In this document: one piece after another, positions 28,271 to 34,456 of the stretch
How positions within the stretch are numbered: position 1 is the stretch's first letter
Layout: the number at the start of each line of letters is the position of its first letter
Origin: Acidimicrobiales bacterium
Lineage (GTDB): Bacteria; Actinomycetota; Acidimicrobiia; Acidimicrobiales; MedAcidi-G1
Direction: 5' to 3'
Assembly (NCBI GenBank): GCA_022452035.1
Contig: JAKURV010000019.1
Span: forward strand, 1-39,761
DNA length: 39,761 bases
The notes under the pieces: model-generated
Told to the model about the DNA's origin: nothing
Seen by the model: only the letters and a program-made list of their open reading frames with translations
Database searches by the model: none
Translations under genes and position numbers: made by a program

Positions 28271-28356
28271 GCCCGGGTGGCGGAACTGGTAGACGCAGCG
28301 GGCTTAAACCCCGCGGCCCCCCAGGGGGCGTACAGGTTCGATTCCTGTCCCGGGCA
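28271..28356 (+). tRNA. tRNA-Leu (anticodon UAA)
   Basis: An 86-nt class II tRNA. The acceptor stem GCCCGGG (28271-28277) pairs with CCCGGGC (28349-28355), with discriminator A28356. The anticodon stem GCGGG/CCCGC (28298-28302/28310-28314) encloses the loop CTTAAAC with anticodon TAA at 28305-28307. A long GC-rich variable arm follows, then the T arm with GGTTCGATTCC. The terminal CCA is not encoded (ACCC follows). It reads the rare UUA codon and UUG. Confidence 0.97.
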
Positions 28357-28398
28357 CCCGCGGTGGCCCCTGCCATCCCGCCCGGCGAGGATGGGCCC

Positions 28399-32209: not shown

Positions 32210-32225
32210 GCTGGACTCCGCTCAG
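32206..32225. terminator. Hairpin at the aconitase X/AhpD convergent junction
   Basis: CTGAGC (32206-32211) pairs with GCTCAG (32220-32225) across an 8-nt loop. The TGA of the aconitase small subunit lies in the left arm and the complement of the AhpD-like stop in the right arm. Three more pairs (GGA/TCC) are possible past a bulged C. Confidence 0.45.
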
Positions 32226-32779
32226 TCCTCGGGTAGCCAGCCCTCAGGGTTCACGCCCAGGCCGTCGGCGATCCGGTTGGCGTAGGCGTAGTAGGCGGTC
32301 ACCTCGGCGATGTCCAGGACGTCCCGGTCGCTGAAGCCAGCGGCCCTCAGGGCCTCCACGTCGGCCGCTGTCATCTCCCCGGGGGCCTGCGTCAGCTTCA
32401 CTGCGTAGGCCAGCATGGCCTGGCGGGCCGGCGACAGGGGAGCGGTCGTCCAGTCGTCCTCGACGGCGGCTAACAGGTCGTCGTCCCGGAGGAGTCGGCG
32501 CAGACCGCGCCGGTGGTGGATCGTTCAGTAGTGGCAGTGGTTCTCGAGGCTGACCACCAGGGCGATCATTTCGCGGTCGGCCTTGCGGAGCGAGCCGGTA
32601 CCGGCCATGGCCGACCGGTAGAGACCGTCGTGAGCAGCCAGGCCCCGAGGGTTGAGGGAGTGGATGGCCATGATGTGGTCGATCCGGCCGTGGGTGGCGT
32701 CGACCACCCGGCCGTACAGGTCAGCCAGGTCGGGGTCGTCCTCCCAACGGTCATCGGGAACGGTGTCGATCCAGGCCAT
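32222..32779 (-). CDS. AhpD-like peroxidase-related selenoprotein (in-frame UGA = Sec85)
   Basis: Read through one in-frame TGA (plus-strand complement at 32525-32527), this is a continuous 185-residue carboxymuconolactone decarboxylase/AhpD-family protein of the peroxidase-related type. It starts MAWIDTVPDD and has IDHIMAIHSLNPRGLAAHDGL. The redox motif reads N-H-C82-H-Y-U85-T-I-H88-H89, and the chain ends with LLAYAVKLT-like LAYAVKLTQAPGEMT, AAGFSDRDVLDIAEVTAYYAYANRIA and GWLPED. The TGA replaces exactly the second Cys of the C-x2-C site, and the usual His follows at +4. A SECIS-like hairpin lies just downstream. Likely role: thiol-peroxidase or disulfide reductase. The alternative is a gene broken by one nonsense mutation; the intact frame and motif placement argue against that. 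Confidence 0.85.
32496..32512 (-). promoter_or_regulatory. SECIS-like hairpin of the AhpD-like gene
   Basis: On the minus strand CGGCGC, loop GGTCT and GCGCCG form a perfect 6-bp stem with a five-base loop. The loop starts 18 nt after the TGA, inside the distance window known for bacterial SECIS elements. GGUCU is the SelB-binding loop I recall from E. coli fdhF. Confidence 0.8.
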
Positions 32780-32810: not shown

Positions 32811-33530
32811 TCAGGCAACGAGGGCGTGTTCCAGCAGCCGGTCGTAATGCGGCCGGGCCTCGTCGATGACCGGTTGCAGGTGGTCGGGTACCGGCTCGGC
32901 GCTCGGGTGGCCGGCCTGGAAGCCGGAGGACCGGTGGGTGCTGGCGTACCAGTGCTCCGCCCACACTCCGTCTTCCGGCTTGGGCCCCGCCGGCCACGAC
33001 AGCATGGCGGGGTCGAAGTCCAGGCCCAGGCGCAAACAGAGCGTCCGAAGCATTGCCTCGGGGTCGGCCAGCAGGGTGGCTGAGTCGACGACCACCGGGT
33101 CTTCTCCCTCGGCCAGGATCGAGTCCAACAGGTCGACCTGGATGGGTAGTCCGGTATCGGCCACGTTCACGTCGGGGACGTTCTTGGCAAACGAGGTCAC
33201 CACCCGGGCCGGGTCCCGGATGAGGAGGATGTTGCGGCATGCGCCCAGGAATCCCCGGTCCAGGTCCACGAAGTGCTTGGCCATCTGCTTGAAGAAAGCG
33301 ACGGGGGTGGGGTGCCTGCCCAGGATCACGTCGCGGACCACTGCCTCACCGTCCGGGTTCTGGCTGGCCAGCACGTCGTCGCGGCCCGGGTGGTCCCGAC
33401 CGGTGACCCGCAGGTAGTGGGCGTAGATGGGCTCGTCGAACACGGTGGTGTCGGAGCGCTGCCGGAAGGCGTACATGAACGACGTGGAGATGTTCCGGGG
33501 CCCGGACCAGCAGTTGATGCGTAGCGTCAT
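32811..33530 (-). CDS. Sulfotransferase-like P-loop protein paired with an aminotransferase
   Basis: The 239-residue P-loop protein belongs to the sulfotransferase superfamily. The N-terminal nucleotide loop is CWSGPRNISTSFMYAF, followed by DEPIYAHYLRVTGRDHPG, the second nucleotide segment NILLIRDPARVVTSF, and the C-terminal GPKPEDGVWAEHWYASTHRSSGF. The last stretch resembles the N-terminal half of the plant branched-chain aminotransferase-like proteins as I recall them. Its start overlaps the stop of the aminotransferase gene by 4 bp (ATGA). The sulfate acceptor, if any, is unknown. Confidence 0.8.
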   Translation of the reverse strand: MTLRINCWSGPRNISTSFMYAFRQRSDTTVFDEPIYAHYLRVTGRDHPGRDDVLASQNPDGEAVVRDVILGRHPTPVAFFKQMAKHFVDLDRGFLGACRNILLIRDPARVVTSFAKNVPDVNVADTGLPIQVDLLDSILAEGEDPVVVDSATLLADPEAMLRTLCLRLGLDFDPAMLSWPAGPKPEDGVWAEHWYASTHRSSGFQAGHPSAEPVPDHLQPVIDEARPHYDRLLEHALVA

Positions 33531-34456
33531 CCCGGCTCGCCCTCTGCTACCACATCGGCCTCGACGGCCTCCAGGTACAGGCTCCGGAGGCGGGCCGTGA
33601 CGGGACCCGGACGACCGTCGCCGATCGTCCTCCCGTCGACTTCGATCACCGGGGTGAGTCCACCGAACGTGCCGGTGACGAAGGCCTCGTCGGCTGAGTA
33701 GACATCGTCCAGCGAAAACGGGACCTGGTGGGCGGCCAACCCGGCCTGGGGTGCCACCTCGAGGACGACCTGCCGGGTGATCCCGTTGAGGTTGTAGTCC
33801 CCGGTCGACGTCCAGACGCCTCCCTCCCGGATGACGAAGAAGTTGGTGGCGTTGCACGTGGCCACGGCGCCTGTGGTGTCCAGCATGAGCGCCTCGTCGG
33901 CGCCCGCTTTTACGGCCTGGATGAGGGCGATGACCTCGTGCAGCTTGGAGTGGCAGTTCAGCCGCTGGTCCAGGGTGTCAGGCGGTGGACGGCGCACGGT
34001 GGCCGTGAACAGGGTGATGCCGCTTTCGACGACCGCAGGATCGGCCGTCTTGTATTCGGCGATGATCACCACGTTGGGCCCACCGACCGCGTTGGAGGGA
34101 TGCTGGGAGGGCGTTTTCTTGTCACCCCGGGTGACCATGAGCCGCACGTGAGCGTCGTCGTGCATGTCGTTGTGTCGGACGGTGGCGTACAGGGCTTCGG
34201 TCACCTGGTCTCGGTCCAGGCCCGGGTCCAGATCAGCGGCCGTTAGGCCAGCGAAGAGGCGGTCCAGGTGGCGGTCCAGGAAGGCGAAGCGGTCGTGGTG
34301 GAGGCGGAGGCCTTCCCAGATGCCGTCCCCGACCAGGAACCCGCTGTCAAAAACCGAGATTCGGGCCTCGTCGCGGGGGAAGAACTCGCCGTTTATGTAC
34401 ACCTCCACCGAGGCGTTGCGCTCGTCGGCCAGGGCCTGGTGGGTGCTTCTTGACAT
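33527..34456 (-). CDS. Class IV (branched-chain/D-amino-acid type) aminotransferase
   Basis: This fold-type-IV PLP enzyme of 309 residues starts with VEVYINGEFFPRDEARISVFDSGFLVGDGIWEGLR, a typical region for BCAT and D-amino-acid aminotransferase. The PLP lysine is in NCHSKLHEVIALIQA. DEALMLDTTGAVATCNATNFFVI and NGITRQVVLEVA bind the cofactor phosphate, and DEAFVTGTFGGLTPV is also conserved. The substrate could be branched-chain amino acids (the divergent neighbour is a Liv transporter) or another amine. The ATG at 34456 is preceded at 7 nt by TACGCT on the minus strand. Confidence 0.87.
   Translation of the reverse strand: MSRSTHQALADERNASVEVYINGEFFPRDEARISVFDSGFLVGDGIWEGLRLHHDRFAFLDRHLDRLFAGLTAADLDPGLDRDQVTEALYATVRHNDMHDDAHVRLMVTRGDKKTPSQHPSNAVGGPNVVIIAEYKTADPAVVESGITLFTATVRRPPPDTLDQRLNCHSKLHEVIALIQAVKAGADEALMLDTTGAVATCNATNFFVIREGGVWTSTGDYNLNGITRQVVLEVAPQAGLAAHQVPFSLDDVYSADEAFVTGTFGGLTPVIEVDGRTIGDGRPGPVTARLRSLYLEAVEADVVAEGEPG

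What the first reader, a model, noticed from the sequence alone, without database searches (positions are those of the whole stretch)
32222..32779. Candidate selenoprotein: AhpD-like peroxidase with C-H-Y-U active site
Seen: one minus-strand frame of 186 codons, including the stop, is interrupted only by a TGA at codon 85. Both halves belong to the same AhpD/peroxidase-related family. The TGA lies at the second cysteine of the C-x2-C motif, with the usual histidine four residues later. Known: Sec often replaces such redox cysteines, and AhpD-like selenoproteins have been reported in marine metagenomes. Inferred: UGA is decoded as selenocysteine. Standard annotation would give two fragments or a pseudogene.
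Basis: partly seen in the sequence, partly recalled or inferred. Interest (0 to 1): 0.93.

Follow-up and report, generated by a model that had tools for sequence, protein, structure and literature searches.

The report
Selenocysteine AhpD-like redox enzyme
The gene is almost certainly a real selenium-containing relative of a bacterial antioxidant enzyme, with its in-frame UGA read as selenocysteine, but selenoproteins of this family have been catalogued since 2005.

Summary
Window 32222-32779 (minus) is a 186-codon frame including its stop, broken only by TGA at codon 85; read through, it scores 139.7 bits to TIGR01926. Selenocysteine decoding is supported by: (1) tRNA-Sec, SelA, SelB and SelD in the genome; (2) TGA at this codon in 16 of 17 same-genus genomes (the 17th has a scrap on a fold-back contig end), in 29 of 29 ortholog-level hits among 198 genomes of the order, and in Acidobacteriota and Chloroflexota homologues; (3) purifying selection on both halves; (4) a GGUCU-loop hairpin 18 nt after the UGA in 44 of 44 aligned genes, with compensatory stem changes, at the spacing of E. 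coli fdhF; (5) U85 aligning with the second Cys of CxxC, with the AhpD relay residues kept. The kind is known: AhpD-like CxxU selenoproteins were reported in 2005, and a 2026 review lists them under TIGR01926. Sec insertion and chemistry remain unproven.

The parts
32222..32779 (-). AhpD-like / peroxidase-related selenoprotein gene (TIGR01926), 185 residues with Sec85; its stop codon TGA is 32222-32224
32525..32527 (-). In-frame TGA, codon 85, read as selenocysteine; last position of C82-H83-Y84-U85
32496..32512 (-). SECIS hairpin: six stem pairs around a 5-nt loop. The inner five pairs are 32497-32511; the outermost pair forms in 27 of 39 distinct rows
32502..32506 (-). GGUCU apical loop, 18 nt between TGA and loop; the same in 44 of 44 aligned genus and order genes
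32811..33530 (-). Same-strand upstream neighbour, Sulfotransfer_5 domain protein; adjacent in 7 of 16 genus genomes, so not taken as part of the mechanism

Best explanation
A functional AhpD-like (peroxidase-related) selenoprotein. UGA-85 is decoded as selenocysteine by SelB with tRNA-Sec at a bacterial SECIS hairpin just downstream. Sec85 most likely acts as the peroxidatic nucleophile in place of the second Cys of CxxC, Cys82 resolves it as a selenenylsulfide, and Glu70 and His89 form the proton relay, so the protein reduces peroxides or serves as a redox adaptor. Shown by computation: frame, conservation, SECIS, sel genes, fold by homology and prediction. Inferred: Sec insertion itself, the chemistry and the substrate. 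The confidence given is for the Sec decoding; the peroxidase-type role alone I put near 0.7.
For: Same genome: tRNA-Sec 67.5 bits, ARAGORN anticodon tca; SelB 272.8 bits, cut-off 242.25, over profile positions 2-344 of 581; SelA 387.7 bits beside it; SelD 361.8 bits with its own TGA at U-GCK. TGA in 16 of 17 genus genomes and in 29 of 29 genomes with a match of 180 bits or more, out of 198 in the order. Of these 29, 28 have tRNA-Sec, against 87 of the other 169 (Fisher p 9e-7, relatedness ignored). Low dN/dS before and after the TGA. GGUCU loop in 44 of 44; covariation score 0.176 against 0.074 in shuffles, 0 of 500 as high; synonymous entropy of codons +4 to +9 is 0.26 of maximum against 0.67 upstream and 0.66 downstream. 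The 18-nt spacing equals that of E. coli fdhF. U85 aligns with Cys in 3c1l, 2pfx and 2oyo. AF2 model pLDDT 87.1, TM 0.83 to 2pfx. E70, C82, Y84, U85, H89 have the spacing of the PA0269 relay Glu36, Cys48, Tyr50, Cys51, His55 (PMC3141380, passages).
Against: No protein-level evidence. The 71-nt fold alone is no better than shuffles (z +0.79); among 16 genus genes the 37-nt MFE fold shows the GGUCU hairpin in 15, and L023 folds otherwise. Random synonymous recodings make loop plus 5-bp stem in 3,037 of 100,000, with a codon pool that includes the SECIS codons. An Rfam scan of 201 nt gives no SECIS (whether Rfam holds a bacterial SECIS model was not established). The tRNA-Sec cut-off is not fully specific: a tRNA-Ser also passes it at 47.2 bits. 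tRNA-Sec was not found in 2 of 17 genus genomes (85% and 66% complete) nor in G086 (80% complete). Outside the order the loop letters often differ: 11 of 15 further phylum loci, and both other-phylum loci.
Confidence: 0.96

Rival explanations
1. Pseudogene: the TGA is a nonsense mutation and the frame is decaying.
For: In one genome alone, a single stop in an intact frame looks like a fresh nonsense mutation.
Against: The same TGA in 44 of 44 genus and order genes and in two other phyla; low dN/dS on both sides.
Confidence: 0.01
2. UGA is a true stop: a short N-terminal protein, or two proteins, or a regulated truncation.
For: The first 84 codons are an ORF by themselves.
Against: The stop would fall at the second redox residue; the hairpin is conserved beyond coding needs; CMD is found only across the join.
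Confidence: 0.01
3. UGA is read through as another residue, not Sec.
For: Some bacteria recode UGA (recalled); suppressor tRNAs were not searched for genome-wide.
Against: A tRNA-Sec with anticodon tca, sel genes and a SECIS are present. TGA is also the end codon of 15 of the 16 genus genes.
Confidence: 0.02
4. A Sec enzyme, but with a non-peroxidase reaction of the CMD superfamily.
For: The superfamily is mixed; the debrominase Bmp8 (6ohi, 6ohj) is a fold match at TM 0.74-0.76. No substrate is shown for this group.
Against: The best fold and sequence matches are peroxidase-related proteins, and the five relay positions fit PA0269, which has weak peroxidase activity.
Confidence: 0.25

Closest known systems
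AhpD-like selenoproteins, CxxU, TIGR01926 / COG2128 (Sargasso Sea 2005; 'AhpD-like 1' of GOS 2008)
   Same: Same family model, CxxU motif, Sec at the second position.
   Different: Those sequences are metagenomic; the passages I saw do not tie them to this lineage, and I did not compare sequences with the review's example MCB9421940.1.
AhpD_rel_CFYUT, NCBIfam NF041238 (the review's 'AhpD-related protein, hypothetical protein 1, Sargasso Sea')
   Same: AhpD domain with C-x-Y-U-T; a member with one TGA is in this same genome.
   Different: Longer model (357 positions); this protein reaches 41.4 bits against a cut-off of 175, and three CFYU rows fall on a far branch.
Cys peroxidase-related proteins 2pfx, 3c1l, 2oyo, 6k40
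   Same: Fold; in 3c1l, 2pfx and 2oyo the CxxC lies at the same place.
   Different: Cys in place of Sec in the three aligned; 32-36% identity.

Membership tests
TIGR01926 peroxidase-related AhpD-like | Score above the curated cut-off (81.8 bits) | tested here: met
   139.7 bits with the TGA read through
TIGR01926 peroxidase-related AhpD-like | CxxC/U pair with Glu, Tyr or His, and His of the relay | tested here: met
   E70, C82, Y84, U85, H89 invariant in 17 rows; spacing as in PA0269
TIGR01926 peroxidase-related AhpD-like | Peroxidase activity | not testable with these tools
   needs purified protein
Bacterial selenoprotein | In-frame UGA at a redox Cys position of homologues | tested here: met
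Bacterial selenoprotein | Hairpin just 3' of the UGA with a guanosine in a small apical loop | tested here: met
   criterion from PMC1088965, passages
Bacterial selenoprotein | selA, selB, selC and selD in the genome | tested here: met
Bacterial selenoprotein | Selenium in the protein | not testable with these tools
   needs mass spectrometry or 75Se
NF041238 AhpD_rel_CFYUT | Score above 175 bits and the CFYUT motif | tested here: not met
   41.4 bits, CHYUT

The most novel reading that the evidence does not exclude
An actinobacterial AhpD-like clade in which selenocysteine is in effect obligatory: in the order sample each ortholog-level copy keeps Sec, none has gone back to Cys, and genomes without Sec decoding lack the gene rather than carry a Cys form. 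It would be a natural case for what only Sec can do.
Probability: 0.35. Interest if true: 0.45.

Novelty: new member of a known kind. Interest (0 to 1): 0.3.

Why it matters
Ordinary annotation would cut this gene at its active site or call it a pseudogene. The 44 aligned orthologs, with a covarying SECIS of fixed spacing, give a usable model of an actinobacterial SECIS. A clade with 29 Sec and no Cys orthologs in 198 genomes is a place to ask why some redox enzymes do not revert to cysteine.

Tried and rejected
Single-sequence folding of 71 nt around the UGA gave no significance (z +0.79); only the alignment did. RF00031 found nothing in the genome, but rang in none of 14 controls, so this says nothing. 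An Rfam scan of 201 nt gave two weak hits, neither a SECIS.

Operon reasoning was rejected: Sulfotransfer_5 and Aminotran_4 genes adjoin the gene in 7 of 16 genus genomes (own window included); 7 with flanks of 8 kb or more show no sulfotransferase match (one has a 31% aminotransferase match about 3 kb away); 2 have under 310 bases upstream and cannot tell.

The Sec/Cys tree (73 rows) is biased, because the query was the Sec clade and loci were taken by score, and its bootstrap had not settled. I use it only to say that no Cys row lies inside the 48-row clade that holds the window (46 U rows, and two SGYW paralog rows on a long branch). The plasmid tblastn gave 406 records, all under 60% identity; the 5 listed are 34-44%. 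Viral and metagenome collections were not searched.

The rows without a stop were mostly not opened: of these I read the motif only in L091 (CLYC) and the two SGYW paralogs. The order and phylum searches scored at most 17 and 8 candidates a genome, so misses are possible.

Full report
Observation. The minus strand of window 32222-32779 reads as 186 codons including the stop, with one internal TGA at codon 85 in the motif C82-H-Y-U85, and His at 89. The N-half alone scores 28.3 bits to TIGR01926, the C-half 88, the whole 139.7 (cut-off 81.8). The Pfam CMD domain passes E 0.001 only when the frame is read through.

Machinery. The window lies in a genome of 2,184,948 bases in 65 contigs, 96.1% complete. 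It has a tRNA-Sec (67.5 bits; ARAGORN anticodon tca), selB (272.8 bits, cut-off 242.25, profile positions 2-344 of 581), selA next to it (387.7 bits) and selD (361.8 bits). The second hit over the tRNA-Sec cut-off (47.2 bits) is a tRNA-Ser. The selD frame has one TGA, at the site U-GCK. The genome also has an NF041238 gene with one TGA in CFYU (281.1 bits). So at least three genes of known selenoprotein families have an in-frame TGA here.

Conservation. Of 17 genomes in the genus, 16 (own included) have the full gene with one TGA, at 63-99% identity. The 17th, G009, matches only over residues 159-184, within the last 400 bases of a contig that folds back on its own neighbour sequence, most simply a chimeric contig end (inferred). 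tRNA-Sec was found in 15 of 17; the two without are 85% and 66% complete. In 198 genomes of the order, 47 match the A1 profile at 1e-25; 29 do so at 180 bits or more, and all 29 have TGA at the site. Of these 29, 28 have tRNA-Sec (exception G086, 80% complete), against 87 of the other 169 (which also drew 198 genomes; the handles listed agree, so I take it as the same draw; Fisher p 9e-7, relatedness ignored). The best match without a stop in the order scores 131.1 bits and is an SGYW paralog. In 396 genomes of the phylum, 17 match at 1e-35: 13 have TGA at the site and 4 have Cys. Homologues from Thermoanaerobaculia (44%) and Chloroflexota (42%) also carry TGA. Both sides of the TGA are under purifying selection: in eight pairs within the window's own group dN/dS is 0.00-0.22 before and 0.17-0.33 after; in the second group several distant pairs are near saturation.

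SECIS. In 44 of 44 genes (16 genus, 28 more from the order) GGTCT lies 18 nt after the TGA. Its Gly codon is GGT in 44 of 44, while elsewhere in the same stretches GGT is 61 of 420 Gly codons. The stem pairs in 93.2% of cells (39 distinct rows), four of six pairs have changes on both sides, none of 500 shuffles reaches the observed score, and sliding the partner by 1-3 columns lowers pairing to 21-53%. Synonymous entropy in codons +4 to +9 is 0.26 of maximum, against 0.67 upstream and 0.66 downstream. E. coli fdhF has GGTCT at the same 18 nt. Against: 71 nt folded singly are no more stable than shuffles; the 37-nt MFE fold shows the hairpin in 15 of 16 genus genes, not in L023; random synonymous recodings make the loop and a 5-bp stem in 3,037 of 100,000. 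Beyond the order sample the loop letters vary: 4 of 15 further phylum loci have GGTCT and 11 do not, and the Acidobacteriota and Chloroflexota loci have GGCCT and GACCT.

Function. U85 aligns with the second Cys of CxxC in 3c1l, 2pfx and 2oyo. The AF2 model (pLDDT 87.1, pTM 0.83) matches 2pfx at TM 0.83 and 6k40_B at 0.85. The M. tuberculosis AhpD relay is Glu118, Cys130, His132, Cys133, His137, and that proposed for PA0269 is Glu36, Cys48, Tyr50, Cys51, His55 (PMC3141380, passages). E70, C82, Y84, U85 and H89 here have the same spacing and are invariant in 17 rows. I infer a peroxidase-type redox role with Sec as nucleophile. The substrate is unknown, and another CMD reaction is a live rival.

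Known or new. The Sargasso Sea paper (PMC1088965, passages) reported 27 AhpD-like CxxU sequences in 2005. The GOS paper (PMC2398784, passages) lists AhpD-like 1 (COG2128, 299 selenoproteins, 902 Cys homologues) and AhpD-like 2 (70). A 2026 review (PMC13188914, passages) gives 'AhpD-like protein, TIGR01926, CxxU' with the 2005 paper as its reference; a 2022 review (PMC9312934, passages) lists it too. The kind is therefore known. In one search, none of the 12 listed of 17 papers held all of selenoprotein, AhpD and Acidimicrobi- (the listing puts papers with more terms first); two relatives bear Acidimicrobiales or Acidimicrobiaceae titles. I score interest 0.3 and novelty as a new member of a known kind.

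Noticed in passing
L046 (G000:C16:39537-40460, minus): SelD of the same genome has an in-frame TGA at U-GCK, so it is itself a selenoprotein candidate.
   Followed up: partly
L112 (G000:C31:10963-11946): A second AhpD-related selenoprotein candidate (NF041238, CFYU). The copies in G002, G009 and G015 have GGTCT downstream of the TGA; this one does not in the 57 nt looked at.
   Followed up: partly
L076 and L082 (G154:C239, G122:C289): A paralog with SGYW in place of CHYU sits directly beside the Sec gene in two genomes: both redox residues lost, perhaps a non-catalytic partner.
   Followed up: no
L062 (G009:C86), last 400 bases: The contig end folds back on its own neighbour sequence and carries only the end of the gene (residues 159-184): likely a chimera.
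   Followed up: yes
L102, L099, L109: Motif variants in distant TGA homologues: AHYU (no resolving Cys), CHCU and CVYU.
   Followed up: no
L092/L109, L094/L110, L093/L108: Three genomes of the phylum (G269, G380, G415) carry two TGA-containing paralogs each.
   Followed up: no
window 32811-34447, minus: A Sulfotransfer_5 gene and an Aminotran_4 gene lie upstream of the AhpD gene on the same strand, kept in 7 of 16 genus genomes.
   Followed up: partly
window 28271-28358, plus: tRNA-Leu (taa), which also scores 41.3 bits against the tRNA-Sec model, under its cut-off.
   Followed up: yes
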